This document shows positions 14,915-47,036 of a stretch of DNA of 64,000 bases, piece by piece. Positions within the stretch are counted from its first letter, which is position 1, and each line of letters opens with the position of its first letter. Origin of the DNA: Zygnema cylindricum (taxonomy: Eukaryota; Streptophyta; Zygnematophyceae; Zygnematales; Zygnemataceae). The DNA lies in contig JBBHKE010002613.1 in assembly GCA_037447655.1 (NCBI GenBank), forward strand, positions 1 to 64,000, read 5' to 3'. The translations under genes were made by a program, and so were the position numbers. The notes below the pieces were generated by a model, which made no database searches, had not been told where the DNA came from, and saw nothing but the letters and a program-made list of their open reading frames with translations.

Positions 14915-16801
14915 TTTCTGACTTTGACTTTGAAAATGAAGAGAAGGAAGAGGGAGAAAAAGAAAAATCTGCAGATTTAACAAAAGAGGAGGAAAGGACA
15001 ACATCCGAGGCAACGCCACAATACGAAGTGGAAACCGATGAGGAATTTGATGAGACACCGGAATTGGAAGATAGGGAAGCTGAAAATCTCCCAAAACGAA
15101 ACCCAAGGATGCCTTCCATACCGGCGTCCGATTTTGAAGGGGGAAGAAGAAGTAGTAAACGACTTCAAGAAAGACAAGTAAATAACCAACTCACAAAGAT
15201 GTCTCACCCAGATGAACCTCAAACATACTTAGAGGCCATAAACACTCCAGAAAGTAGCCGGTGGATCACAGCTATAAATGAAGAAATGGCCTCTATCATG
15301 GAAGCCAATACATGGGAGTTGGTAGATTGTCCACCGGACCGAAAACCGATCGGATGTAAGTGGGTGTTTAAACTTAAATTAAACCCGGATAATACCATTG
15401 AGAGGTACAAAGCTAGGTTAGTTGCAAAAGGTTATACACAAAAAGAGGGGGATAGACTACGAAGAAACCTTTGCACCTGTAGTCAGATTTCCTTCTGTTA
15501 GAATCCTTTTAAGTATAGCCGCAGCGGAGGATATGGAAATCCACCAGATGGATATTAAAACTGCCTTTTTGCACGGAGAGTTGGAAGAAGAAATTTACAT
15601 GAGGCAACCGGAAGGATTCGTGGAAAGTGGGGAAGAAAACAAAGTTTGCAAACTGATAAAATCACTCTATGGGCTTAAGCAAGCCCCGCGACAGTGGAAT
15701 ATAAAGCTCGACGAATTTCTGACCGGTTTGGGGTATATCAGAATTAGTTCAGATCACTCTATATATTTATTTGAGGATGAGAATGGAGTGATATTTATTG
15801 CTATTTATGTTGATGATTTGTTGGTCTTAAGCAAGTCTTTAGATAAAATTAACAAACTAAAACGGGATCTTAGAAGCAGTTTTGATATGAAAGATCTTGG
15901 AGAAGCAAAGTACATTTTGGGAATTCAGATGGAGAGAGATAGAGGGAATAGAATTATAAGACTCACTCAAAAAGAAGCAATCGGTAATATGCTAGAAAAA
16001 TTTCAAATGGAGAAAGCAAACGGATGTACTACTCCCATGGATTTGAAGAAAGTGAGTGAGGGGAGTGAAGAGGGAGGAATATTCATCATTAATGATGAGA
16101 TGGACGAGATAGAAAGAAAATTTATGGAAAATATCCCTTATCGGCAGATTGTAGGCAGTTTAATTTATTTTATGAACTGTACCCGTCCGGATATAGCTGC
16201 AGCTGTAGGTGTCCTTAGTAGAAATCTAAATGAACCAAGAAAGAGAGATTGGGAGGCTGCCAAAAGGGTGATGAGGTATCTGGTGGGGACAAGGGAGTTA
16301 TGGTTGCATTTGGGAGGGGAGCACACTGATATCACCACTTGGAGTGATGCCAGTTATGGAGATGTGCCTTTAAGGAGGTGTACGACTGGATATGTGTTGC
16401 AAATTGGATCCGGTGCATGTTGTTGGAGTAGCAAGCAACAAAAAGTAGTTGCTCAGTCCACTATGGAGGCTGAATACATGGCTTCTTGTGCTGCCACCAA
16501 AGAATTAATGTGGGTTAAATCTCTTTTTGAAGAACTTGGGTTCATGAAGTTTGGAACTCAAAATGTTTTTTGTGATAATCAAGCTGCTATCTCGATTGCA
16601 GCTAATCCGAAACATCACTTCAAAGCTAAGCATATGGATATTAGACTAAGCTTTGTGAGAGAGAAGGTAGAAAATAAAATTATTAAACTGGTTCATAAAA
16701 CTGATAGAGAAATGATTGCAGACATGATGACAAAAGCAGTGCCTTCCCCTAAGTTGATTTATTGCAGAGAAAACTGTGGATTAAAATTGAAAAGTGACTA
16801 G
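14915..16801 (+). pseudogene. pol: Copia reverse transcriptase-RNase H (one frameshift)
   Basis: RT (RVT_2 family) copies the genomic RNA and RNase H removes it. The region 15028-15445 holds the linker and the RT start (SSKRLQ, CKWVFKLKLNPDNTIERYKA). One extra G in a G run near 15448-15452 shifts the frame, as element A shows by comparison. The second frame runs unbroken from 15422 to 16801 (459 codons) with the RT motifs HQMDIKTAFLHGE, SLYGLKQAPRQW and catalytic YVDD (residues 129-132). RNase H follows with WSDASYG, TMEAEYMAS, FCDNQAAI and IADMMTK. Apart from that single base, RT-RNase H looks functional. Confidence 0.9.
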
Positions 16802-16802
16802 G

Positions 16803-16814
16803 AATTAAGGGGAG
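16803..16814 (+). other. Polypurine tract
   Basis: aattaaggggag immediately before the 3' LTR start (TGTTG). It is the expected primer for plus-strand DNA synthesis, and the same motif precedes the 3' LTR in A, D and E1. Confidence 0.85.
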
Positions 16815-16960
16815 TGTTGAAAAGAGGTAATTAATAGTTCACTTCCCTATTTAGTTTTGTTTTAAAGAAAGAGAGTAAGGATCAAAGGCGCGCCATGGCT
16901 GCCGCCATATTTAGAAAGTGGCAGTTTTTTGCAGTTAAGGGTATTTTGGCTAAAATGATG

Positions 16961-17034
16961 CCTAGGTCTAGGTTTGAACCCATGACCTCTAGATTCTTTG
17001 TAGCCTAACGCCTTAACCATTAAGGCGTTACGAA
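16961..17034 (-). other. tRNA-like domain in LTR (antisense)
   Basis: On the minus strand: GCCTTAATGGTTAAGGCG (resembling the D arm of plant tRNA-Arg/Ser) and the B-box-like GGGTTCAAACC (16981-16971). AACGCCTTAA and TTAAGGCGTT form a perfect 10-bp inverted repeat around TGG. Confidence 0.65.
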
Positions 17035-17321
17035 ACGATACACGTGACGGGTTTCATAAATATATAAACATTAACGAAACAGCTAATTAACAGCAGACTA
17101 ACCAAAAGGAGCAATTTCTGCATGTACGCGAATCTGAACCGTGTAAAATATGTTTTGATCGGACGGCCGGCATTATAGCCGCCACGCGAAGTGAGCTTTT
17201 TGGCGGCATACGGATATAGCGTCACGCGGTGCCACGTGGCGCCACATTATTTGATACCGGAGAAGATGGGAGGAGGAACCATGGCTTCCGATATGACAAG
17301 TGTCACCTTGTAGACCTTGTC

Positions 17322-17482
17322 GTACAATAGTTGTACAATAAGTACATCGCCCATTGTACCTTCTTGTACTTTATAGTGTTCCTATTGGACTAGGGTTTAA
17401 TAGTAGGTAGTCGTGAGTAGGCAGACCGAGACTTAGTAATATTTAGGTACCTCTCTCTCTAAGAGAGCTTGTAACTATAAAG
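17322..17482 (+). promoter_or_regulatory. LTR promoter: GTAC cluster and TATA-like box
   Basis: Five GTAC palindromes lie in 48 bp (17322, 17333, 17342, 17356, 17366), followed by CTATAAAG at 17475-17482. Equivalent GTAC clusters and TATA boxes occur in the other LTR subfamilies (for example TATAAAT at 51903). GTAC is the core bound by plant SBP-box/SPL factors; that these bind here is inference. Transcription would start about 30 bp on, near the first leader hairpin. Confidence 0.5.
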
Positions 17483-17508
17483 GTCATCTTTGACCAGCCA
17501 TAACTTAC

Positions 17509-18433: not shown

Positions 18434-18878
18434 CTCTATCTATTTACGTACGAACTAATCAAATGACTGTAGGGTGTAGAAAGATACTACGACCGATGTA
18501 CTTTGTGTACGGCCTGTGTACGAGAAGGCCATTAAGTGGACGCGTGTCCACTTTTAACTCGTCCTTCCATTCTCCGAAATTCCCGCAACCGAATGTTATC
18601 TCTCCTCGTGTTGCTAGGTCAGGCCACTTCCACAAACCGCCAAGGTGACCATTCCGCAATTTTGGCAGTGATATGTGCTGTCACATCACAAATTGACATT
18701 CAATATTAGCCGTAAAACAAATGTCCGATTCATTTGTTTCGTGCAAGATAATGTTCCCATTATTTATCACTTGTTCTATGTTCTTTCATACGTCGTTCCG
18801 ATAATCGAAATCATGGTCAAAATACGGTTTGAATAAATTTCACACCCAATGAATTTCAACAAACTTCTACGACAGACC
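18434..18878 (-). repeat. 3' LTR of element C2, left part (split by E1)
   Basis: U3 segment of a minus-strand LTR, closely like 12470-12870 of the LTR at 12151. Its continuation is at 25324-25597. The R-U5 side is missing because another LTR ends at 18433. Element E1 interrupts it after 'cgacagacc'. Confidence 0.8.
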
Positions 18879-19925
18879 TGAAACTGTGAGATCTCCATAA
18901 GTCCTCAGAGTAGACAGCTTCCAAGAAGCCTCTAGGATAATCCTGACCCCTTTGTGTTTCAGCAAAAATAACTGCCACCCTGGCAGACAAAAACCCTGAC
19001 CACCTGCACCCCTGTAAAGGCAAGACTCCCCTGAGTCGATAGCAAAAAGAATCTCTGAATTTGCTCCCCTGAGCAGTAAGTTATGGAGGGTCAAAGTTGA
19101 CCTTTTGTACAGAAGCTCTCTGGGAGAGAGGGTCCTATCTCCTAATTTTTCTAAGTCCTATCTCTCTCACAGACTCTATCTACTGATGTACGAAACCAAT
19201 CAGAATACAGTTCCGTACGCAAAAGTACAGCTGCCGGTGTACTTTAGGTACGGACATTGTACGACATGGCCTAAATGTCGACACATGTCATATCCGGATT
19301 CGGTGCCATAATCTCCGGAGATTCCACGATCCAATGTAATTTCGCCAGCGTCATCCGATGTGGCGATGGCCACAAACCGCCGAAATCTTCCTCCGCGATC
19401 TCGGCGCTAATCCCGACCGTTTGATTAAATTCGGATTTAATCGTAGTCGTAATAAATACATGCGCGGTATTTGTTTCACTTACTAAACAAATGCGCGGTA
19501 TTGATTTTTGTCCGTACCGTAATTCGTACATTATATATTACTGGATCTATGTATCCCGTATTCCATTTCAGTTAAATGATTTATCGCACATATAATCATT
19601 TAAATAAATATCAAACTACATTGTACATAATACAACGGGTAGACTTAACGGCTAAGGCTACCGGCTATTTCCTGATTGCCGACTGTAGGTACAAGGATCA
19701 AATCCTGCCGCCGTTACATACCTTTTAAATAAATAAATAAACCCTAATGTAAAATTCCCGTAAACCTCAGGATAGCCAAGGTAGCCATGGCTCTAGCTTC
19801 CTCTCCAATTTCTCAGTGACTGCGACAAGTTTGAGAGTTGGAGAGAGAAGTTAGAGATAGACTGCCTCGACTTCTATATTTCTTTTCAGACCTAGAAAAT
19901 ACTAATAAAACCATTAGTTTCTACA
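18879..19925 (-). repeat. 3' LTR of E1
   Basis: 1047 bp, plus-strand ends TGAAACTGTGAG and TTAGTTTCTACA. Adjoins the polypurine tract (ctccccttattttc on the plus strand, 19926-19939). Confidence 0.9.
19641..19712 (+). other. tRNA-like domain in LTR (antisense)
   Basis: T-loop atcaaat (19697-19703) flanked by CAAGG and CCTGC, preceded by a D-arm-like GGCTAAGGCTACC. Degenerate. Antisense to its LTR. Confidence 0.5.
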
Positions 19926-22970: not shown

Positions 22971-24292
22971 TTAATATGGAGTCTTTCCTTCTACTAACAC
23001 TTTTAGATCTACCGATCCTACAAGAGTAGTGGTGACTATCCTCCCATCCCTGTACTCTATCTCTACGGTGGGAATCTTTCTTATCTTAGTGAACAGGTGT
23101 CTATCCTTACACATGTGCATGGAGGCAACTGAATCTACAATCCAGCCTGCTTCACCTTTCAATCCCCCGTAAGCACATTTCTGCCTTCGTGGAATTTCGA
23201 CCTCATTTTTCGCCTCCAACTCCTCATCCAAAAGGAGCTCATTGTCCTCGTCCTCGGATTCAGCCTCAAGTACCTGTGTGACAAGGGCCTTTTTCTTTCC
23301 TGTCGGGGTACCACCGGTCTGGCCCTCCTTTAACCGAAGCTCGGTTAGCTTAGTGCACTCTGCCATATAGTGCCCCGATTTCTTACAAAAGTGACATAGA
23401 CCTTGGGGAGCCCTTGGTTCGAACTCATCGACCTGTTTTTTCTGCTCCCTACCCCCATAGTTTCCGACCGGTTTTCGGGAATCCCTGTTCCTCCAATCTT
23501 CCGCTATTGCCAAGGCTTGGCCACTCTTTCCTCCCCTTCGGATCTCGATTGTATTCTCTTGAACGAGAATCATCCCTACCACTAAGTTCCATATCCACCT
23601 TGAGTCAGGCAAGTCCTGCACACGGTAAACTATGTTCACGAACTCATCAGGTAACTTCATCAGTAAACAGTTAACCTTTTTTTTTTCACTAAAATCATTT
23701 CCCGCACACTGTAGCTCCATGAAGAGTGTAGCAAGCTCATTGCAAAAATCCAACATATTTCCCCCTTTGTATACATACTCCTTAACTTTCTGATCAGCCA
23801 ACTGTTGTTGCTGAATCGTACCACTTCGGTACATCTCTATGAGAGCCATCCAAAGATCGGATGCCCTTTCTACCTGCAAATGAGGACATGCAAGTCCTTG
23901 AGTGAGATGGCGTAGGATGAAGTGCTTTGCCCCCATATTGTTGAAGTCCCAGGTTTCAGTATCATTCTCCTCATTCCTCGGAATAGGTGACATGAATGTC
24001 GAACCAGATGCTATTGGTGTGGTCGTCTCCTTCTCCTTTCCCTTGTCCACCACCTCTCCTTCTTTTGTTTCCTCCGTTGAAGGTGGGTCCTCTTTCCTGG
24101 TGAATCTGGTTCCTCCAAACCCTGAGGAATTCCAAGACTTGATGGACGCCCTAACCGTCCACTCACTATCCCCCAAAACCTTTTTTCGCATAGAGCTCCT
24201 ATCATCATACTTTCCCTGTATATGAAGCCAGTTCCATTAAAGATTGGTACCCTAGAGGGTGGGCACATAACCTGAAACTCTGAGACCTCCAT
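22971..24292 (-). pseudogene. gag: E1 gag-protease
   Basis: Starts at an ATG at 24292 inside the 5' LTR and reads through the PBS as EFQVMCPPS; the Cys comes from a base change in the PBS (normally Gly). A frame change near 24110-24190 separates the N-terminus from a 406-codon stretch. That stretch has the copia Gag domain (NMLDFCNELATLF, NCLLMKLPDEF), one knuckle CHFCKKSGHYMAEC, and the aspartic protease site WIVDSVASMHMC, where the Gly of D-S/T-G-A is Val. The protease is probably inactive. Confidence 0.9.
24258..24272 (-). other. Primer-binding site, half initiator tRNA-Met
   Basis: Minus strand GGTTATGTGCCCACC: one mismatch to the family PBS, adjoining the LTR end at 24273. Confidence 0.85.
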
Positions 24293-25318
24293 AAGTCCTC
24301 AAAGTAGACAGCTTCCAAGAAGCCTCTAGGATAATCCTGACCCCTTTGTGTTTAAGCAAAAATAACTGCCACCCTGGCTGACAAACACCCTGACCACTGC
24401 ACCCCTGTGAAGGGAAGACTCCCCTGAGTTGTAGCAAAAAGAATCTCTGATTTTGCTCCCCTGAGCAGTAAGTTATGAAGGGTCAAAGTTGACCTTTTGT
24501 ACAGAAGCTCTCTGGGAGAGGGGGTCCTATCTTCTAATTTTTCGAAGTCCTATCTCTCTCACAGACTCTATCTACTGATGTACGGAACCAATCAAAATTG
24601 AGTTCCGTACGCAAAAGTACAGCTGCCGGTGTACTTTAGGTACGGACATTGTACGACATGGCCTAAATGTCGACACATGTCAAATCTGGATTCGGTGCCA
24701 TAATCTCTGGAGATTCTACAATCCAACGGAATTTCGCCACGCGTCATCCGATGTGGCGATGGCCACAAACCGCCGAAATCTTCCTCTGCGATCTCGGCGC
24801 TAATCACGACCGTTCGATTAAATTTGGATTTAATCGTAGTCGTAATAAATACATGCGCGGTATTTGTTTCACTTACGAAACAAATGCGTGGTATTGATTT
24901 TTGTCTGTACCGTAATTCGTACATTAAATATTACTGGATCTATGTATCCCGTAATCCATTGCAGTTAAATGATTTATCGCACATATAATCATTTAAATAA
25001 ATATCAAACTACATTGTACATAATACTACGACTAGACTTAACGGCTAAGGCTACCGGCTATTTCCTGATTGCCGGCCGGTAGGTACAAGGATCAAATCCT
25101 GCCGCCGTTACATACCTTTTAAATAAATAAATAAACCCTAATGTAAAATCCCCGTAAACCTCAGGATAGCCAAGGTAGCCATGGTTCTAGCTTCCTCTCC
25201 AATTTCTCAGTGACTGCGACAAGTTTGAGAGTTGGAGAGAGAAGTTAGAGATAGACTGCCTTGACTTCTATATTTCTTTTTAGACCTAGAAAATACTAAT
25301 AAAACCATTAGTTTTACA
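24273..25318 (-). repeat. 5' LTR of E1
   Basis: 1046 bp, plus-strand ends TGAAACTCTGAG and TTAGTTTTACA. The gag ATG lies 20 bp inside its terminus. Very similar to the 3' LTR. Confidence 0.92.
25034..25105 (+). other. tRNA-like domain in LTR (antisense)
   Basis: Same domain as at 19641, with T-loop atcaaat near 25091-25097. Antisense to its LTR. Confidence 0.5.
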
Positions 25319-29377: not shown

Positions 29378-30207
29378 TGTTGTAATTTGAAATCTTTAGT
29401 CCTCATTAGATGAGGCTGTGAGGGGAGACTTTTAGGACTTAGAATATTTTTTAGGAAGCATGATGTAATACTTACCATATATAGTATAACAGTAGCAAAA
29501 GTATTCTTGAGTATGTTGTACTTCTACAAAGACACGTGTCGGCAGTCGAAGACTATACAGGTTTTATGGAAAAGTCCCAAAGACGAATTACATGCGTCGT
29601 GCATCTGACAAATGGATTCGCATAATCGGACGGACATAATCTGAATTAAATTTAAAAGAAATAGATGGGAGGGTCTGCCGTAATGACTGTTGATTCGAAT
29701 CGTGTCGACGGACATGATTCACGCGGGACCACAAGTGACGAAGCACGGCGTACGCACTCAGGTGCTTCGTACCACATGACCACACTCAGTTGGACTTATG
29801 TGACCTATGTTGACACAAGCGACAAAAACGAACTTCGAATACTAATTGAGTCGACAGACTCGATTCGAAGTGGGACCACATTCGGAAAAAATTACTAGAC
29901 GCATGTCATCCACTGATATGATTTACTCTACATCTAACAGTGATCCGCAAATTTGAAGTTGACTTGTACGGACGCTTTTAGCCATTTCGATAGATTCACT
30001 AATTGCTGACTAAGCAAGTTGCACAATTCATGTACAACTCGTATTTGTAAATATTTGAAACAACTCTAATTTATATGTAGTGAATTATTTTTTAGTGTTA
30101 CAATAGTGAAATTAGACAAAAGTTATAATTAGGGTTTGGACGTACCTCAGGTAAAGTAGACATACCGTTGACGTACATTGTCTGTATTTAGTACAATACT
30201 TAATTAC
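29378..30207 (+). repeat. LTR of element T, left part (split by element A)
   Basis: Starts TGTTGTAATTTGAAATC directly inside the C2 gag and resumes at 36422. Joined, the LTR would be about 1.34 kb. No tRNA-like domain was found in it. The sequence is unlike the other LTRs and shows no open frame of interest. Confidence 0.65.
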
Positions 30208-31094
30208 TGAAATTCTGTGGTCTCCATTGACCCACAGAATGAGCAACCTATGTAAAGCCTCTAGGATAATATTTTCCACTTTTACTTTCCCGCTGAATAA
30301 GCGCCACCCAGGCACACAAATATTTTGACAACTCTCACCCTTGTGAGGACAAGACTCCCCTGAGTCAAACTTAAAAAGAATCACTGAATTTGCTCACCCG
30401 AGCAGTAAGTTATGGCTGGTAAAAGATGACCTTTATAGTTACAAGCTCTCTTAGAGAGAGAGGTACCTAAATATTACTAAGTCTCGGTCTGCCTACTCAC
30501 GACTACCTACTATTAAACCCTAGTCCAATAAGAACACTATAAAGTACAAGAAGGTACAATGGGCGATGTACTTATTGTACAACCATTGTACGACAAGGTC
30601 TACAAGGTAACACCTGTCATATCGGAAGCCATGGTTCCTCCTCCCATCTTCTCCGGTATCAAATAATGTGGCGCCACGTGGCACCGCGTGACGCTATATC
30701 CGTATGCCGCCAAAAAGCTCACTTCGCGTGGCGGCTATAATGCCGGCCGTCCGATCAAAACATATTTTACACTGTTCAGATTCGCGTACATGCAGAAATT
30801 GCTCCTTTTGGTTAGTCTGCTGTTAATTAGATGTTGCGTTAATGTTTACATATTTATGAAACCCGTCACGTGTATCGTTTCGTAACGCCTTAATGGTTAA
30901 GGCGTTAGGCTATAAAGAATCTAGAGGTCACAGGATCAAATCTAAACGTAGGCATCATTTTAGCCAAAATACCCTTAACTGCAAAAACTGCCACTTTCTA
31001 AATATGGCGGCAACCATGGCGCGCCATCCTTACTCTCTTTCTTTAAAACAAAACTAATATAGGGAAGTGAACTATTAATTACCTCTTTTCAACA
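30208..31094 (-). repeat. 3' LTR of element A
   Basis: 887 bp, plus-strand ends TGAAATTCTGTGG and CTTTTCAACA, next to the polypurine tract (plus strand ctccccttaattcc, 31095-31108). Confidence 0.93.
30881..30945 (+). other. tRNA-like domain in LTR (antisense)
   Basis: CGCCTTAATGGTTAAGGCG D-arm-like inverted repeat, then a B-box-like segment degraded to AGGATCAAATC. Antisense to its LTR. Confidence 0.55.
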
Positions 31095-31107
31095 CTCCCC
31101 TTAATTC

Positions 31108-32589
31108 CTAGTCACTTTTCAATTTTAGTCCACAGTTTTCTCTACGATAAATCAACTTAGGGGAAGGCACTGCTTTTTTCATCATGTCTGCAATCATTTC
31201 TCTATCAGTTTTATGAACCAGTTTAATAATTTTATTTTCTACCTTCTCTCTGACAAAGCTTAGTCTAATATCCATATGCTTAGCTTTGAAGTGATGTTTC
31301 GGATTAGCTGCAATCGAGATAGCAGCTTGATTATCACAAAAAACATTTTGAGTTCTAGACTTCATGAACCCAAGTTCTTCAAGAAGAGATTTAACCCACA
31401 TTAATTCTTTGGTGGCAGCACAGGAAGCCATGTATTCAGCCTCCATAGTGGACTGAGCAACTACTTTTTGTTGCTTGCTACTCCAACAACATGCACCGGA
31501 TCCAATTTGCAACACATATCCAGTCGTACACCTCCTTAAAGGCACATCTCCATAACTGGCATCACTCCAAGTGGTGATGTCAGTGTGCTCCCCTCTCAAA
31601 TGCAGCCATAATTCCCTTGTCCCTACCAGATACCTCATCACCCTTTTGGCAGCCTCCCAATCTCTCTTTCTTGGTTCATTTAGATTTCTACTAAGGATAC
31701 CTACAGCTGCAGCTATATCCGGACGGGTACAGTTCATAAAATAAATTAAACTGCCTACAATCTGCCGATAAGGAATATTTTCCATAAATTTTCTTCCTAT
31801 CTCGTCCATCTCATCATTAATGATGAATATTCCTCCCTCTTCACTCCCCTCACTCACTTTCTTCAAATCCATGGGAGTAGTACATCCGTTTGCTTTCTCC
31901 ATTTGAAATTTTTCTAGCATATTACCGATTGCTTCTTTTTGAGTGAGTCTTATAATTCTATTTCCTCTATCTCTCTCCATCTGAATTCCCAAAATGTACC
32001 TTGCTTCGCGAAGATCTTTCATATCAAAACTGCTTCTAAGATCCCATTTTAGATTGTTAATTTTATCTAAGGACTTGCTTAAGACCAACAAATCATCCAC
32101 ATAAATAGCAATAAATATCACTCTATTCTCATCCTCAAATAAGTATATAGAGTGATCTGAACTAATTCTGATATACCCCAAACCGGTCAGAAATTCGTCG
32201 AGCTTTATATTCCACTGTCGCGGGGCTTGCTTAAGCCCATAGAGTGATTTTATCAGTTTGCAAACTTTGTTTTCTTCCCCGCTTTCCACGAATCCTTCCG
32301 GTTGCCTCATGTAAATTTCTTCTTCCAACTCTCCGTGCAAAAAGGCAGTTTTAATATCCATCTGGTGGATTTCCATATCCTCCGCTGCCGCTATACTTAA
32401 AAGGATTCTAACAGAAGGAAATCTGACTACAGGTGCAAAGGTTTCTTCGTAGTCTATCCCCTCTTTCAGAGTATAATCTTTTGCAACTAACCTAGATTTG
32501 TACTTATCAATGGTATTATCCAGGTTTAATTCAAGTTTAAACACCCACTTACATCCGATCGGTTTTCGGTCCGGTGGACAATCTACCAA
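31108..32589 (-). CDS. pol: Element A reverse transcriptase-RNase H, open
   Basis: 493 codons without a stop. The ATG is internal to the polyprotein, not a true start. RT motifs: CKWVFKLELN, HQMDIKTAFLHGE (about residues 75-87), SLYGLKQAPRQW and catalytic YVDD (residues 163-166). RNase H motifs: WSDASYG, TMEAEYMAS, FCDNQAAI and IADMMKK, where the usual Thr of ADMMTK is Lys. All catalytic acids are present. Very close to element B's protein, which differs mainly by its frameshift. Confidence 0.93.
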   Translation of the reverse strand: MVDCPPDRKPIGCKWVFKLELNLDNTIDKYKSRLVAKDYTLKEGIDYEETFAPVVRFPSVRILLSIAAAEDMEIHQMDIKTAFLHGELEEEIYMRQPEGFVESGEENKVCKLIKSLYGLKQAPRQWNIKLDEFLTGLGYIRISSDHSIYLFEDENRVIFIAIYVDDLLVLSKSLDKINNLKWDLRSSFDMKDLREARYILGIQMERDRGNRIIRLTQKEAIGNMLEKFQMEKANGCTTPMDLKKVSEGSEEGGIFIINDEMDEIGRKFMENIPYRQIVGSLIYFMNCTRPDIAAAVGILSRNLNEPRKRDWEAAKRVMRYLVGTRELWLHLRGEHTDITTWSDASYGDVPLRRCTTGYVLQIGSGACCWSSKQQKVVAQSTMEAEYMASCAATKELMWVKSLLEELGFMKSRTQNVFCDNQAAISIAANPKHHFKAKHMDIRLSFVREKVENKIIKLVHKTDREMIADMMKKAVPSPKLIYRRENCGLKLKSD

Positions 32590-33108
32590 CTCCTATGTAT
32601 TGGCTTCCATGATAAAGGCCATTTCTTCATTTATAGCTGTGATCCACCGGCTACTTTATGGAGTGTTTATGGCCTCTAAGTATGTTTGAGGTTCATTTGG
32701 GTGAGACATCTTTGTGAGTTTGTTATTTACTTGTCTTTTTTGAAGTCATTTACTACTTCTTCTTCCCTCTTCAAAATCGGACGTCGGTATGGAAGGCATC
32801 CTTGGGTTTCGTTTTGGGAGATTTTCAGCTCCCCTATCTTCCAATTCCGGTGTCTCATCAAGTTCCTCATCGGTTTCCACTTCGTATTGTGGCGTTGCCT
32901 CGGATGTTGTCTTTTCCTCCTTCTCCTTTGGTAGATATGCAGATTTTTCTTTTTCTCCCTCTTCCTTCTCTTCATTTTAAAAGTCAAAGTCAGAAAACTG
33001 ATCCGTTTCAAATCTGATTTTTATTTCCTTATTATATATGAATGGATCAATGGACTTTTCTTCATTCATCACCACTAAGTGTTTTACCAAAATTATATCT
33101 CTCTTTTC
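32590..33108 (-). pseudogene. pol: Element A integrase-RT linker
   Basis: Acidic linker between integrase and RT (KIRFETDQFSDFDF, TDEELDETPELED, SDFEEGRRSSK). It reads in the RT frame but with four in-frame stops, including codons replacing Arg and Glu found in element B. It also covers the RT N-terminus (MSHPNEPQTYLEAI). Confidence 0.8.
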
Positions 33109-34083: not shown

Positions 34084-35545
34084 CTAGGACAGCTGTTGAG
34101 ACTAGGTTCTTGCTAAGTTGTGGAATGTAAAGAACGTCTGAGAGTGTTACAATTGAGGCCTTTCCATCAACTAGAACCTTCAAGTCAACAGTTCCAATAA
34201 GACTTGTGGTTTCTACTCTACCATCTCCGTACTCTATCTCAACTGTTGGGATCTTTCTCAGTTTAGTGAACCACCGCTTATCTTTGCACATATGCATTGA
34301 AGCCCCTGAGTGTATGATCCACCCATCCTCGGGTGGATCCCTCTTACCTCCGAAAGCACACTTTTGTCTCCGTGGAATGTCGACATGATTTTCAGTGTTT
34401 TTCGGATTAAGGAGAAGCTCCGCAAGCTCCTCTTCAGGTTCAGTATTTTCTTCCACTTCCTCATCAAGAACTTCAGTCAGCAAAGCCTTTTTCTTTCCTC
34501 CGTCCTTTGAGATTCCTTGGTCATTTTTCAGTCGAAGACCTGCAAGTGTGACACAATCTGCCATATAGTGTCCCGGTTTCTTGCAGAAGTGACATAATCC
34601 TCCTCGAGAAGTTCCTCTCCCCTGTCTATCAAATCTGCCACCTCCTAGTCCTCTTCCACCAAAGTTTCGATAGGGATCTTTCCCTCTCTCCTCATCACGC
34701 TTCCGCCAATCAGCTCCTGCAGACAATGCTTGAACACTTGGACTCCCTCTCCTAAGCTCTATGGTGCTTTCTTTCACTAAAATCATTCTCACAGTGTCAT
34801 CCCAATTCCAATTGCTATCTCCTATGTCCTGCAATCGGTTAATGATATTCTCATACTCTTCAGGTGGTTTCATCATTAATGTGTTCACTCTTTGTCTCTC
34901 AGACCATGAGTTACCAGCACTCTCTAACTCTCCAAACAATGCTCCTAAATCATTGCAATAATTATCCATACTTCTTCCCTTACAAGTATAAGCTGCAATC
35001 TTATTTTCTGCCAATTGTTGCTGCTGCAATGATCCACTTTTATATTTGTTAACTAGTGATATCCAAATCTGAGATGAAGATTTGACATGCATAAGGGGAA
35101 TGGCAATGCCCTTTGCTACACTTTTAAGAATTAAGAGCTTAGCAACCTTGTCTTTGTAGTTCCACTTTTCATACTCTGATCTTTCGGTCTGAACCCTTGT
35201 CGCCGTTGCTAGTGGTGCTGTTGCCGGTATCGCCTTCGGCAATGGTGTTACTTGAGTTGCAACTCCTTCTTTTTCTCCTTCCATGACAATCTCTTCTCCT
35301 TCCTCATCTTCATCCTCGGTGATGGTGGCAGCTGTTCTACCAACTGTAGAGGCGGAGATGCCAGAAAAACGTGTCCCTCCAAACCCAGGTGGAGGTGGGC
35401 ATCGAATTTCTCCGGACAATATGCCCCATAGATGCTTCTCAAATAGTTCTCCCTCCATCATCATTTCCCAATAAAGAAAGTCTGATCCATCAAATATGGG
35501 CAATCTAGAGGGTGGGCCCATAACCTGAAATTCTGTGGTCTCCAT
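34004..35545 (-). CDS. gag: Element A gag-protease, open, starts in the LTR
   Basis: 513 codons. The ATG at 35545 is 20 bp inside the 5' LTR, in the loop of its terminal hairpin; codons 8-12 (VMGPP) are the primer-binding site. Then FDGSDFLYWE (residues 18-27), a copia Gag domain (about 125-240, with DNYCNDLGALF), one CCHC knuckle (C318-C331, CHFCKKPGHYMADC), an acidic linker and the protease motif WIIHSGASMHMC at about 409-420. The catalytic Asp of D-S-G-A is His (residue 412), so the protease should be inactive although the frame is intact. The frame ends in the gag-pre-integrase region by a frame change. Confidence 0.92.
   Translation of the reverse strand: METTEFQVMGPPSRLPIFDGSDFLYWEMMMEGELFEKHLWGILSGEIRCPPPPGFGGTRFSGISASTVGRTAATITEDEDEEGEEIVMEGEKEGVATQVTPLPKAIPATAPLATATRVQTERSEYEKWNYKDKVAKLLILKSVAKGIAIPLMHVKSSSQIWISLVNKYKSGSLQQQQLAENKIAAYTCKGRSMDNYCNDLGALFGELESAGNSWSERQRVNTLMMKPPEEYENIINRLQDIGDSNWNWDDTVRMILVKESTIELRRGSPSVQALSAGADWRKRDEERGKDPYRNFGGRGLGGGRFDRQGRGTSRGGLCHFCKKPGHYMADCVTLAGLRLKNDQGISKDGGKKKALLTEVLDEEVEENTEPEEELAELLLNPKNTENHVDIPRRQKCAFGGKRDPPEDGWIIHSGASMHMCKDKRWFTKLRKIPTVEIEYGDGRVETTSLIGTVDLKVLVDGKASIVTLSDVLYIPQLSKNLVSTAVLDEKEFETGTRKGIFTTSFDNELLFHS
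35511..35525 (-). other. Primer-binding site, half initiator tRNA-Met
   Basis: Minus strand GGTTATGGGCCCACC, perfect complement to the anticodon arm of plant initiator tRNA-Met, directly after the LTR. Confidence 0.9.
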
Positions 35546-36416
35546 TGACCCACAGAATGAGCAACCTATGTAAAGCCTCTAGGATAATATTTTCCACTTT
35601 TACTTTCCCGCTGAATAAGCGCCACCCAGGCACACAAATATTTTGACAACTCTCACCCTTGTGAGGACAAGACTCCCCTGAGTCAAACTTAAAAAGAATC
35701 ACTGAATTTGCTCACCCGAGCAGTAAGTTATGGCTGGTAAAAGATGACCTTTATAGTTACAAGCTCTCTTAGAGAGAGAGGTACCTAAATATTACTAAGT
35801 CTCGGTCTGCCTACTCACGACTACCTACTATTAAACCCTAGTCCAATAGGAACACTATAAAGTACAAGAAGGTACAATGGGCGATGTACTTATTGTACAA
35901 CCATTGTACGACAAGGTCTACAAGGTGACACCTATCATATCGGAAGTCATGGTTCCTCCTCCCATCTTCTCCGGTATCAAATAATGTGGCGCCACGTGGC
36001 ACCGCGTAACGCTGTATCCGTATGCCGCCAAAAAGCTCACTTCGCGTGGTGGCTATAATGCCGGCTGTCCGATCAAAACATATTTTACACTGTTCAGATT
36101 CGCGTACATGCAGAAATTGCTCTTTTTGGTTAGTCTGCTGTTAATTAGCTGCTGCGTTAATGTTTATATATTTATGAAACCCGTCACGTGTATCGTTTCG
36201 TAACGCCTTAATGGTTAAGGCGTGAGGCTATAAAGAATCTAGAGGTCACGGGTTCAAATCTTTACCAAGGCATCATTTTAGCCAAAATACCCTTAACTGC
36301 AAAAACTGCGACTTTCTAAATATGGCGGCAGCCATGTCGCGCCTTTGATCCTTACTCTCTTTCTTTAAAACAAAACTAAAATAGGGAAGTGAACTATTAA
36401 TTACCTCTTTTCAACA
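35526..36416 (-). repeat. 5' LTR of element A
   Basis: 891 bp, plus-strand ends TGAAATTCTGTGG and CTTTTCAACA. Nearly identical to the 3' LTR, so insertion was fairly recent. Confidence 0.94.
36199..36265 (+). other. tRNA-like domain in LTR (antisense)
   Basis: AACGCCTTAATGGTTAAGGC D-arm-like repeat and B-box-like GGGTTCAAATC about 50 bp on. Antisense to its LTR. Confidence 0.6.
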
Positions 36417-38380: not shown

Positions 38381-38390
38381 NNNNNNNNNN
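38381..38390. other. Assembly gap (10 N)
   Basis: Ten unknown bases; a scaffold join. The sequence to its right is abnormal (next entry). Confidence 0.99.
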
Positions 38391-38653
38391 GTTATCTACT
38401 TGGGTTTAGGTAACTTCCACCCGTGGGATGTCCCACCCGGGTATTGGACGTTAAAACACAGGAGGTAACCTGGTGTCTTATGTCCCTCGGAGATCTATCA
38501 TAAACTGATTGGGTGAAGTTCGGTTTTGGTAACGACGGAACCTTCCGTTTTACTATCAAACTGACGTGGGGATACGTCGTACCTGAGGGAACTCAGGCAT
38601 CGTTTTTCTTAGTGACTTTTGCCGGTTGGTCGGCTATTCAATACTCCGTCATT
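38391..38653. other. Mirror-image sequence, probable assembly artefact
   Basis: Read backwards without complementing, these 263 bases match 38763-39025 base for base wherever I compared them (position i pairs with 77416 minus i). Example: 38582-38597 cctgagggaactcagg is the reversal of 38819-38834 ggactcaagggagtcc. Matching fails exactly at 38654, where normal LTR sequence resumes. Reversal without complement would need DNA of opposite polarity, so no known recombination or replication step makes it. It touches the N gap. Confidence 0.95.
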
Positions 38654-38968
38654 CTCATTGGTCCGTACTTCAGTAGATAGAAGTTATTAGAGAGAATCAG
38701 GACTTAGAAAATTTTGGTAGGTAGTCACCTCTCCCATTGAGAGTTTGTACAAATTGGCATTTTTACTGCCTCATAACTTATCGGCTGGTTGGCCGTTTTC
38801 AGTGATTCTTTTTGCTACGGACTCAAGGGAGTCCATGCTGCATAGGGGTGCAGTCAAACTATCATTTTGCCTTCCAAGGCAGCAATGGTTTTGGCTTGAA
38901 GTGGGTTAGTCAAATACTATCTAGAGGCTCCCTGTATTCTGTGGTCCAATGGAGGACACAAAATTGCA
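38654..38968 (+). repeat. 5' LTR of D, R-U5 side only
   Basis: Matches 45105-45453. Contains the leader hairpins (CGGC/GCCG at 38782-38795; GGACTC/GAGTCC at 38819-38834) and the gag ATG at 38949. The U3 part is lost at the artefact and gap. Confidence 0.85.
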
Positions 38969-40120
38969 GGTTATGGGCCCACCCTGTAGGGTGCCCACCT
39001 TCAATGGATTTGGGTTCATCTATTGGGAAGCCATGATGATGGGAGCTTTGTGCGAAAAACGATACTGGGGTATTGTTAGTGGACAAGTGAAACGTCCACC
39101 TTCAGGAACTCCACCATGATTTAAAGGAGTAAGGTTTCTTGCAGCAACGGCTGCCTTAGCGGAGGATGCAGATGATAGGGACAGCAACATTGTCGAAAAA
39201 GGGAAAGGGAAGGAGACACCCTCACTCCTATTGCCACAGTACCGGGAGAGGCGACCGTGAAGACCGCGCAGAACAATACTCAAATGTGGGAGGATGTAAA
39301 CATGGCTGCCAAGAACTTTATTCTCAGGCACCTCACTCAAGCCTTAGCCACTCCTCATCTTCACATTTACAAGGCCGAGGAGTTATGGGTGAGTTTGGTG
39401 GAGATTTATAGAGCTGGAACTACTCAGGAGCTCCAGTTCGTTGAGCAAAAGCTAGTGAGTTACACTTACAAAGAAAGAAAGATGTTAGATTACTGTAATG
39501 ATCTTTCTTGTTTGTATATGGAGATGGAAAGTGCCGGGTGGACAGGTACAATGAAAATGAAAGTTAACACTCTTATCATGAAGTTAACATATGAGTTCGA
39601 GAACATAGTGTATCGAATACAGAAAATACCTGATAGTTCATGGAAATGGAACATAGTGGTTAGGATGATACTTGTGCAAGAAAACACAATGGAGATTAGG
39701 AGAGGAGGGAAGAGCATTCAAGCTCTAGCAGCAGGAGGGGACTAATGGGGGAAGGACCCGAAGAAACCTTACAAATGGGAAAAGGATCATTCTGGGTGAC
39801 TCAAGCCCCCAAAGGGTCTTTGTCATTTTTACAAAAAGCTGAGACACTTCATCGCAGATTGTGTCAAGCTGTCACAGCTCAGGCTCCAAGAGAACCGTGG
39901 AGGGGGTTCTTTCGGAGGGAAGAAAAAGGCACTTGTGGCTACAAATGTGATACAAGAAACCGAGGATGAGTCCTCGGAGGAGGACGGGGAGCTTCTTCCT
40001 GACGAGAGTTTGGAGGAGGAGGAGATCCCTCGGAAACAGAAGTGTGCCCTTGGAGCCATTCGGGAAGATCCACAGGAAGGATGGATTATTGACTCAAGTG
40101 CATCCACGCATATGTGTCGT
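38949..40120 (+). pseudogene. gag: D gag and protease
   Basis: Starts in the LTR, reads KLQVMGPPC through the PBS, then FNGFGFIYWEAMMMG. A TGA near 39118 (probably from CGA) and a frame change precede a 162-codon stretch from 39257 with the Gag domain (NFILRHLTQALA, MLDYCNDLSCLY). The knuckle is degenerate (CHFYKKLRHFIADC; Cys to Tyr, Gly-His to Arg-His). An acidic linker (EDESSEEDGELL) leads to the protease site WIIDSSASTHMC, where Gly is Ser. A GAA-to-TAA stop follows at about 40126. Confidence 0.88.
38969..38983 (+). other. Primer-binding site, half initiator tRNA-Met
   Basis: GGTTATGGGCCCACC directly after the LTR terminus ..TTGCA. Confidence 0.9.
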
Positions 40121-44380: not shown

Positions 44381-45453
44381 TGTTGAAATTAATAGATTTC
44401 TAGAGTATTTTCTAGGTGTAAATTTGTTAGGATAAAAGAAAAGAAATGGACGGGCAGCCTGCCTCCACCTCTTCTCTCTATCCCCCATACTTGTTTTTGT
44501 CACTGAAGGATGGAGAGGGTGGTTGATCGATGGATGCCTTAGTTCAAGAGGCAGTTATTTTTAATAGGTTACGAAAAATATACCTGACGGACCCGGGATT
44601 TGATCTTGGTACCTACGGTTCGTCAAGTTGGCTGATAGCGGTCAGCTTTATCCTATTAGACTAGGACCAATGCTAAATGCTATAGTATGTGATAGATAAA
44701 TATATCTATAAGGAGGAACAAATTCTTTTAACTTAAACTGTATATGCCTTGCATAGATACAGTTTTATGAAAGTACGAAGTACGACACCTTTTTCAAAAC
44801 GAATACCACACATTTTGTTTTGAAAGCGAAACAAATATCGCGCAAGTATTTATAACGGCTAAGATTGCATCTCGTTGTGAATCCAACGGCGCACATCATC
44901 GCTGAAATCCAGGAGTGGTCGCTTTGGCGTTTTGTGACTTGGCATGACCTGGAGCCACGTGGAGAGATGACATTCGGTCATAGGAATTCCGAGGAATGTA
45001 CAAACGAGTGAAAAGCAGACACGCGTCCGCTAAATGTCCTTGTCGTACATAGGCCGTATAAAAGGTACATCGGCAGCAGTACTTTTTGGTACGGTACAGT
45101 AATCTGATTGGTCCGTACTTCAATAGATAGAAGTTATTAGAGAGAATCAGGACTTAGAAAATTTTGGTAGGTAGTCACCTCTCTCTTTGAGAGTAAATTT
45201 TGGTAGGTAGTCACCTCTCTCTTTGAGAGTTTGTACAAATTGGCATTTTTACTGCCTCATAACTTATCGGCTGGTTAGCCGTTTTTAGTGATTCTTTTTG
45301 CTACGGACTCAGGGAGTCCAGGCTGCACAGGGGTGCAGTCAAGCTGTTATTTTGCCTTCCTGGACAGCAGTGGTTGTGGCTTGAAGTGGGTTAGTTAAAT
45401 ACTATCTAGAGGCTTCCTGTATTATGTGGTCCAATGGAGGACACACAATTGCA
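44381..45453 (+). repeat. LTR shared by D (3') and E (5')
   Basis: 1073 bp, TGTTGAAATTAATAG..CACACAATTGCA. It has D's polypurine tract on its left and E's PBS on its right. A segment of about 37 bp (aaattttggtaggtagtcac..) is tandemly duplicated near 45157-45230. Confidence 0.9.
44590..44666 (-). other. tRNA-like domain in LTR (antisense)
   Basis: Minus strand has CCAAG-atcaaat-CCCGG in the T-arm position; two of five stem pairs are lost. Antisense to its LTR. Confidence 0.5.
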
Positions 45454-47036
45454 GGTTATGAACCCACCCTCTAGGGTGCCCAACTTCAATGGATTTGGGT
45501 TCATCTATTGAGAAGCCATGATGAAAGGAGCTTTGTGCGAAAAACGATACTGGGATATCGTCAGTGGACAAGTGAAACTTCCACCTTCGGGATCTCCCCC
45601 AACATTTGGAGGAGTAACGTTTCCTACAGCAACGGCTCCTTCAGTGGAGGAGGCAGATGATGGGGACCCCAATGTGTCCGAAAAAAGGAAAGGGAAAGAG
45701 ACACCATTTACTCCTATTTCCATAGTACAAGAAGCACCGACCGTGATGACCACGGAGAACAATACTCAAATGTGGGAGGATGTAAACATAGCTGCCAAGA
45801 ACTTTATTCTCAGGCACCTCACTCAAGCTTTGGCCACTCCTCATCTTCACATTTAGAAGGCCGACGAGTTGTTGCTGAGTTTGGTGTAGATTTATACAGC
45901 TAGAACTATTTAGGAGCTCCAGTTGGCTAAGCAAAAGCTAGTGAGTTACACTTACAAAGGAGGAAAAATGTTAGATTACTGTAATGATATTTCTTGTTTG
46001 TATATGGAGATGGAAAGTGTCGGGTGGACATGTACAATGAAAATGAAAGTTAACACCCTTATCATGAAGTTACCAGATGAGTTCGAGAACATAGTGTATC
46101 GAGTAGAGGAAATGCCTAATAGTTAATGGAAATGGAACACTGTGGTCAGGATGATACTTATACAGGAAAACACAATGGAGATTAGGAGAGGAGGAAAGAG
46201 CATTCAAGCTCTACCAGCAGGAGGGGACCGATGGGGGAAGGATCGGAAGAAATCGTACAAAGGGGAAAGAGATCATCTTGGAGGACCGAGGCCACCAAAG
46301 GGTCTTTGTCATTTTTGCAAAAAGCCAGGACACTTCATCCCACATTGTGTCAAACTCTCGGAGCTGAGGCTCCAAGAGAACCGTGGAGGGGGTTCTTGCG
46401 GAGGGAAGAAAAAGGCACTTTGGTTACAAAAGTGACAAGAGAAACCGAGGATGAGTCCTCTGAGGAGGATGGGGAGCTTCTTCTTGACGAGAGTCTGGAG
46501 GAGAAGGAGATCCCTCGGAGACAAAAGTGTGCCCTTGGAGCAATTCGGAAAGCTCTACAGGAAGGATGGATTATCGACACAGGTGCATCCATGCATATGT
46601 GTCGTGATAAAGAACTCTTCACTAAGCTAAGGAAAATCCCTACTGTAGAGATAGAGTATGGGGATGGGAGAATAGTTACTATAGATCTAGTGGGATCAGT
46701 AGATCTCAAAGTCTTTGTGGAGGGTAAGACTTCTATACTTACATTCTCTGAAGTACTCTACATTCCTTAGCTGAGTAAATTTTTTGTCTCTACGTATGTG
46801 TTAGATGACAAAGAGTTTGATACCTTCAATCGTAAGGGAGTCTTTACAACTAAGTATGGGGATGAAGTTTACTTCACGGCAGATAAGGGTAGCCAAGGAA
46901 TGTTGGCAACAGAGTGTGAAAAGAGATGCTTTTATGTTGGTGTTCCTAAGTTGATTTTGGCATAAGCGGTTGGGGCATGTGCATTTTGGATAGAGGAAAA
47001 AAGGGTGGGGATAATGAAATGATGCTTCTAACTCAA
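45434..47036 (+). pseudogene. gag: Element E gag-protease and integrase N-terminus
   Basis: ATG in the shared LTR; reads QLQVMNPPS through the mutated PBS, then FNGFGFIY and a TGA in place of Trp. Gag domain (NFILRHLTQALA, MLDYCNDISCLY), intact knuckle CHFCKKPGHFIPHC near 46307-46348, frame change near 46400, then an acidic linker and an intact protease site WIIDTGASMHMC (about 46565-46605). This is the only main-family protease here with the canonical D-T-G-A. The sequence decays after VLYIP (stop near 46768) and is lost by about 47036, before the integrase core. Confidence 0.88.
45454..45468 (+). other. Primer-binding site of E, half initiator tRNA-Met
   Basis: GGTTATGAACCCACC: the family PBS with two G-to-A changes. 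Confidence 0.8.

What the first reader, a model, noticed from the sequence alone, without database searches (positions are those of the whole stretch)
38391..38653. 263-base exact mirror image (reversed, not complemented) next to the N gap
Read 3' to 5' without complementing, 38391-38653 matches 38763-39025 base for base (i pairs with 77416-i). The match stops sharply at 38654, where normal LTR sequence resumes. Strand polarity forbids this product in ordinary inversion, recombination or copying, so the likely cause is a data-handling or gap-filling error. Any annotation using the D 5' LTR or the gap flank is affected.
Basis: seen in the sequence. Interest (0 to 1): 0.9.

Follow-up and report, generated by a model that had tools for sequence, protein, structure and literature searches.

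The report
Gap-fill piece written backwards
A stretch of DNA beside an assembly gap is the neighbouring sequence spelled backwards, most likely the trace of a gap-filling software error that recurs at many other gaps of the same genome, so it is not biology but does damage the assembly.

Summary
38391-38653 equals 38763-39025 read backwards without complementing, 263 of 263. It abuts the window's only N gap (38381-38390).

The search of the window's own assembly is decisive. Queried in this backward polarity, the segment matches 35 places, itself included (the tool calls such counts lower bounds). I fetched all 35 (34 loci). All 35 lie at the edge of an N run, and all 34 of those edges carry a mirror of their own contig end. 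Of 29 other edges in these loci, 8 are also mirrored, plus one CT microsatellite. Over 42 mirrored edges, 8277 arm columns show 4 mismatches.

The geometry suggests the cause. A read or local-assembly piece was placed correctly across each contig end but written reversed instead of reverse-complemented, and only the part in the gap was kept. Between the arms, sequence reads normally in 19 edges and backward in 11, as expected when the overlap is longer or shorter than the overhang.

For the window this implies a 635-base piece over 38391-39025. 38391-38653 should be treated as unknown sequence. It is not a feature of the organism. The tool responsible and the share of all gaps affected could not be determined.

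The parts
38381..38390 (.). 10-N assembly gap, the only one in the window
38391..38653 (+). Artefactual fill: reverse (not complemented) of 38763-39025; should be treated as unknown sequence
   Evidence: 263 of 263 identity; scores lower than each of 486 sliding windows by an order-4 Markov polarity score, not by order 2 or 3; in its written polarity BLASTN finds nothing else in the window, while reversed it matches LTR copies, best 92% at 45249-45510
38654..38762 (+). 109-base stretch between the arms, normal polarity, native LTR sequence at the true contig start
   Evidence: aligns to other copies in normal polarity over all 109 bases, no hit in reversed polarity; 38654-39025 aligns as one piece, 372 of 372, to a normal copy; its own mirror identity is 15 of 54
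38763..39025 (+). Source in normal polarity: 3' part of the copia-type LTR (to about 38968), primer-binding-like motif at 38969, start of the internal region
   Evidence: LTR end inferred from the LTR pair of element C (18876-19925 and 24270-25318) and the motif
38391..39025 (.). Inferred footprint (635 bases) of the piece that was placed in the right position but written backwards
   Evidence: mirror axis at 38708; inference from geometry shared by 42 gap edges

Best explanation
It is a gap-filling error. A sequence piece of about 635 bases (a read, merged reads or a small local contig) overlapped the right-hand contig by 372 bases and hung 263 bases into the gap. It was given the right position, but its letters were written reversed instead of reverse-complemented (equivalently, complemented but not reversed). 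Inside the contig the contig's own letters were kept. In the gap, the first 263 letters of the backward piece were written and 10 N were left. The same fault acted at many gaps of this assembly. Shown: mirror identity, position at N-run edges, polarity of arms and of most spacers. Inferred: the piece's identity as a read or local contig, the 635-base footprint, and the software step.
For: Backward matches of the segment were found at 35 places in the assembly, all 35 inside (to within 3 bases) the zone between an N-run edge and the inner mirror arm, none away from an N run. 42 mirrored edges; 40 of 42 arms exact from the N to the junction, 4 mismatches in 8277 arm columns. Outer arms have their best hit in reversed polarity in 40 of 42, inner arms in normal polarity in 40 of 42; the other 2 (L007 right, L024 left) have no homolog in the set. 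The stretch between the arms is normal in 19 (L034 with a weaker backward hit), backward in 11, mixed in 1 (L005) and undecided in 11. In all 11 backward cases outer arm plus spacer aligns to one reversed homolog as a single stretch covering at least 97% of its length, and the rest of the fetched locus holds no exact counterpart of the spacer: 8 of 11 no reversed match at all, 3 of 11 a partial or diverged one. So these fills hold sequence that continues the contig into the gap. Mismatches inside two mirror arms (L019 three, L032 one) suit a read rather than a self-copy. The two classes are what one rule (piece reversed in place, part outside the contig kept) predicts for overlap longer or shorter than overhang.
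Against: No raw reads, gap-filler log or assembly record could be examined. The near-zero mismatch rate (4 of 8277) also fits copying from the contig itself in the 19 normal-spacer cases. One spacer (L005) shows both polarities, and L004 right, counted as backward, also has a weaker normal-polarity alignment over spacer plus inner arm (251 against 315 bits). 20 of 29 non-targeted edges show no mirror, so the fault does not hit every edge, and its trigger (for example reads on the opposite strand) is a guess. The loci were found through one repeat family; a test with other families did not complete. 13 of the 35 N runs in the loci are longer than 10; the tool says that withheld stretches also read N, so some long runs might not be assembly gaps.
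Confidence: 0.96

Rival explanations
1. The software padded contig ends with a reflected copy of the contig itself (reflection padding or a seed string reversed), with no read involved.
For: In 19 of 42 edges the backward part is found in the neighbouring contig and the stretch between is normal, and arms are almost free of mismatches.
Against: In 11 of 42 edges the fill also holds backward sequence that continues a family homolog without break and has no exact counterpart in the rest of the fetched locus. The distance between arms varies from 1 to 324 bases, unlike fixed reflection. Two arms hold mismatches.
Confidence: 0.03
2. A real biological process made mirror-image copies of DNA.
For: Only that the letters are present in the assembly.
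Against: Copying and recombination keep 5'-3' polarity (established knowledge; passage in PMC11403998). 35 of 35 matches lie at N-run edges and none elsewhere. Arms run up to the N. The sequence is not of the purine-pyrimidine type of natural mirror repeats. In the window the arm ends match no element boundary that I could place.
Confidence: 0.003
3. An ordinary inverted repeat (hairpin or missed-adapter chimera) misread by the first reader as a mirror.
For: Inverted repeats at contig ends occur in long-read chimeras (recalled).
Against: Identity to the reverse complement is 0 of 263 against 263 of 263 to the plain reverse; BLASTN on both strands finds no other match in the window for the segment as written.
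Confidence: 0.001

Closest known systems
Reversed (uncomplemented) decoy sequence used to calibrate homology searches
   Same: Same transformation of DNA; in PMC11403998 the reversed mitochondrial genome is used as a source of spurious matches because DNA does not evolve through simple reversal (one passage seen).
   Different: There it is made on purpose as a control; here it sits inside a genome assembly and would give true high-scoring matches in such a control.
Gap-filling misassembly at repeat-rich contig ends
   Same: Wrong bases put in at the edge of scaffold gaps; PMC6733440 discusses incorrect gap filling and repeats at contig ends (passages seen).
   Different: The error meant there is a wrong fill of ordinary polarity (my reading of the passages); here the letters run backwards. 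My searches of the paper library for this kind of fault listed no title that reports it; one search showed 20 of 50 papers, and I read passages of one paper only. This does not show that no report exists.
Natural mirror repeats (H-DNA-forming)
   Same: Symmetry by reversal without complementing.
   Different: Those are made of purine or pyrimidine tracts (recalled); this one is 263 bases of mixed sequence, 46.8% purine, longest purine run 7.

Membership tests
Backward gap-fill artefact | Exact reversal without complement of the flanking contig | tested here: met
   263 of 263; 0 of 263 to reverse complement
Backward gap-fill artefact | Runs exactly to an N gap | tested here: met
   38381-38390 N, arm starts 38391; 42 mirrored N-run edges in 34 loci, 40 of them exact from the N onward
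Backward gap-fill artefact | Occurs only at gap edges in the assembly | tested here: met
   35 of 35 matches of this segment; tested for one repeat family only
Backward gap-fill artefact | Absent from raw reads or PCR product | not testable with these tools
   no reads or DNA available
Natural mirror repeat (H-DNA) | Purine-rich or pyrimidine-rich strand (criterion recalled) | tested here: not met
   purine fraction 0.468, longest purine run 7, longest pyrimidine run 8
Inverted repeat | Arms are reverse complements | tested here: not met
   0 of 263
Copia-type LTR retrotransposon (the source sequence) | Copia gag downstream and LTR homology | tested here: met
   Retrotran_gag_2 in 39179-39742, E 4.1e-13; alignment to LTR copies
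Copia-type LTR retrotransposon (the source sequence) | Complete 5' LTR | tested here: not met
   LTR sequence starts at 38654 beside the fill and gap; about 315 bases remain to the motif at 38969, against about 1050 in element C

The most novel reading that the evidence does not exclude
Mirror-polarity DNA really exists at these sites, made by an unknown polarity-breaking process, and it is what stopped the assembler and left the gaps.
Probability: 0.003. Interest if true: 1.

Novelty: not a real feature. Interest (0 to 1): 0.25.

Why it matters
For biology it does not. For users of this assembly, an unknown but repeated set of gap edges carries up to a few hundred bases of backward sequence (arms 35 to 353 bases in 42 edges), which can yield false junctions, false divergence and false open frames at repeat and gene edges. 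It also breaks the assumption behind reversed-sequence decoys, since a reversed query finds true matches in this genome. A self-mirror scan at N-gap edges is a cheap test that could be run on any assembly. The backward-spacer fills suggest that some of the lost gap sequence is present in the assembly, though reversed.

Tried and rejected
Self-BLAST of reversed gap flanks merged the two arms on one diagonal and hid most mirrors; replaced by a direct scan of mirror axes. Lower-order polarity models do not single the segment out: at order 2, 13 of 486 windows score lower; at order 3, 1; at order 4, none; the training set includes related LTR copies, so this test is not wholly independent of the alignments. 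A gap edge with a CT microsatellite (L014 right, two dinucleotides only) was dropped from the 43 edges with a mirror run of 30 or more, leaving 42; the arms of L007 right and L024 left, which have no homolog in the set, are of ordinary complexity. An unbiased sample of gaps was tried and not granted (one search gave no loci). A test with other repeat families reversed did not complete. The species could not be named: Chloroa_b-bind has 88 matches, and a RuBisCO small subunit fragment scores best against chains that I take, from recall, to be of land plants (the table names no organisms), so a plant of the streptophyte line is likely. The search for arthropod cuticle domains gave nothing, but its controls rang nowhere either, so it says nothing. 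I had first thought of an insect because of the primer-binding motif (recalled); the light-harvesting genes overturned this. The viral contigs gave no match to the gag patterns, and Rfam none at gathering scores in the window.

Full report
OBSERVATION. The window segment 38391-38653 is the exact reverse, without complement, of 38763-39025: 263 of 263 bases, no extension possible on either side, and 10 N directly to its left. It is no inverted repeat (0 of 263 against the reverse complement) and has no other BLASTN match in the window as written, on either strand. No other mirror pair in the window exceeds 28 bases, and 20 first-order Markov sequences of the same length gave at most 21.

WHICH COPY IS BACKWARD. 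Read in reverse, the segment matches related LTR copies, 92% at 45249-45510 and 83% at 12350-12094 among others; as written it matches none. The segment holds 15 CG and 3 GC dinucleotides, its source 3 and 15. By an order-4 Markov polarity score it lies below each of 486 sliding windows, while the 263 bases left of the gap and the 109 bases to its right score as normal; with order 2 the segment is not exceptional (13 windows lower) and with order 3 one window is lower (all). So 38391-38653 is the backward one and 38763-39025 is native.

SETTING. The right contig starts at 38654 inside a copia-type LTR. It aligns to another copy at 45104 onward, whose sequence goes on upstream in further copies. 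By comparison with the LTR pair of element C, about 1050 bases long (18876-19925 and 24270-25318), about 735 bases of this LTR would be missing in or beyond the gap. The motif GGTTATGGGCCCA at 38969 marks the LTR end; that it is a primer-binding site is recalled. The mirror ends, 38763 and 39025, match no element boundary that I could place. A copia-type gag domain follows in 39179-39742.

THE REST OF THE ASSEMBLY. The window lies in an unnamed assembly of 352,776,454 bases in 2689 contigs. Searched there in its backward polarity, the segment has 35 matches, from 35 first-look candidates all scored, the window's own included; the tool says that such counts of repeats are lower bounds. The native polarity gives 4991 first-look candidates, of which 40 were scored. 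I fetched all 35 places as 34 loci. Every one of the 35 lies, to within 3 bases, between an N-run edge and the inner mirror arm. These loci hold 35 N runs, 22 of exactly 10 N, with 63 usable edges. All 34 edges that carry a match are mirrored. Of the other 29, 9 have an exact mirror run of 30 or more, one of which is a CT microsatellite, so 8 are counted; the 20 remaining have best runs of 8 to 15. In several loci both edges of one gap are mirrored, for example L004, L016, L023, L027 and L030.

GEOMETRY. Over the 42 mirrored edges the arms add up to 8277 columns with 4 mismatches, three in L019 and one in L032. The arms are 35 to 353 bases long and the stretch between them 1 to 324. Against a set of homologs (window and loci with the mirror zones masked), outer arms hit best in reversed polarity in 40 of 42 and inner arms in normal polarity in 40 of 42; L007 right and L024 left have no homolog there. 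The stretch between the arms is normal in 19 edges (L034 with a weaker backward hit too), backward in 11, both in 1 (L005, where the genome match also runs on into the stretch), and undecided in 11 because it is short or has no homolog. In all 11 backward cases outer arm plus stretch matches one reversed homolog as one piece covering at least 97% of it; one of them, L004 right, also has a weaker normal alignment. In 8 of the 11 the rest of the fetched locus holds no reversed match to the stretch at all; in 3 (L004, L022, L028) it holds a partial or diverged one.

MECHANISM. One rule accounts for both classes. A piece overlaps the contig end by S bases and hangs out by o bases. It is laid in the right place but with its letters reversed, and only the part outside the contig is written. 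If S exceeds o, the fill is a mirror of contig sequence starting S minus o bases inside, and the stretch between the arms is native. If o exceeds S, the whole overlap is mirrored and the rest of the fill is backward new sequence. The length of the piece is twice the arm plus the stretch: 635 bases in the window, with S 372 and o 263; 95 to 736 with median 507 over 42 edges. Mirror identity, polarity and position at N-run edges are shown. That the piece is a read or a small local contig, and that the slip is a missing complement for pieces on the opposite strand, is inferred. Which program did it is unknown.

WHAT THE LITERATURE SHOWS. Seven of the ten looked for reports of reversed or mirror artefacts or gap-filling faults. 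By the titles and abstract openings listed, none reports this fault; two searches found no paper, and one search listed 20 of 50. From PMC11403998 I saw one passage, which uses reversed sequence as a decoy and says DNA does not evolve through simple reversal. From PMC6733440 I saw passages on incorrect gap filling. Other papers were seen in listings only.

LIMITS. The 34 loci were found through one repeat family and so are biased towards mirrored edges; 8 of 29 non-targeted edges is the least biased figure but still comes from neighbours of hit edges. Some of the longer N runs could be stretches withheld by the tool. No raw reads were available.

VERDICT. It is not a biological feature. 38391-38653 should be treated as unknown sequence, and no mend is proposed.

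Noticed in passing
window 45148-45240: The LTR copy at 45104 carries a 36-base tandem duplication that the 38654 copy lacks.
   Followed up: no
window 18876-19925 and 24270-25318: LTR pair of a minus-strand copia element, 95.3% identical over 1052 columns, with open frames between them, one with a copia gag domain.
   Followed up: partly
window 15315-17491 and 30422-32593: Two copies of a copia pol region in opposite orientation, sharing exact reverse-complement stretches up to 166 bases, probably a young pair.
   Followed up: no
window 30207-30530 and 35525-35848: 324-base exact direct repeat flanking minus-strand frames with copia gag and reverse transcriptase domains, probably LTR ends of one element.
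   Followed up: no
window 36930: The left flank of the gap has its own GGTTATGGGCCCA motif, so the gap may join two different copia-type elements.
   Followed up: no
L023:3815-4273: A perfect 459-base mirror with a one-base centre at a gap edge, the case in which overlap and overhang would be nearly equal.
   Followed up: partly
L018, L021, L022, L024 and seven other edges: Backward fills whose inner part has no exact counterpart in the rest of the fetched locus, so gap sequence seems to be held in the assembly in reversed form.
   Followed up: partly
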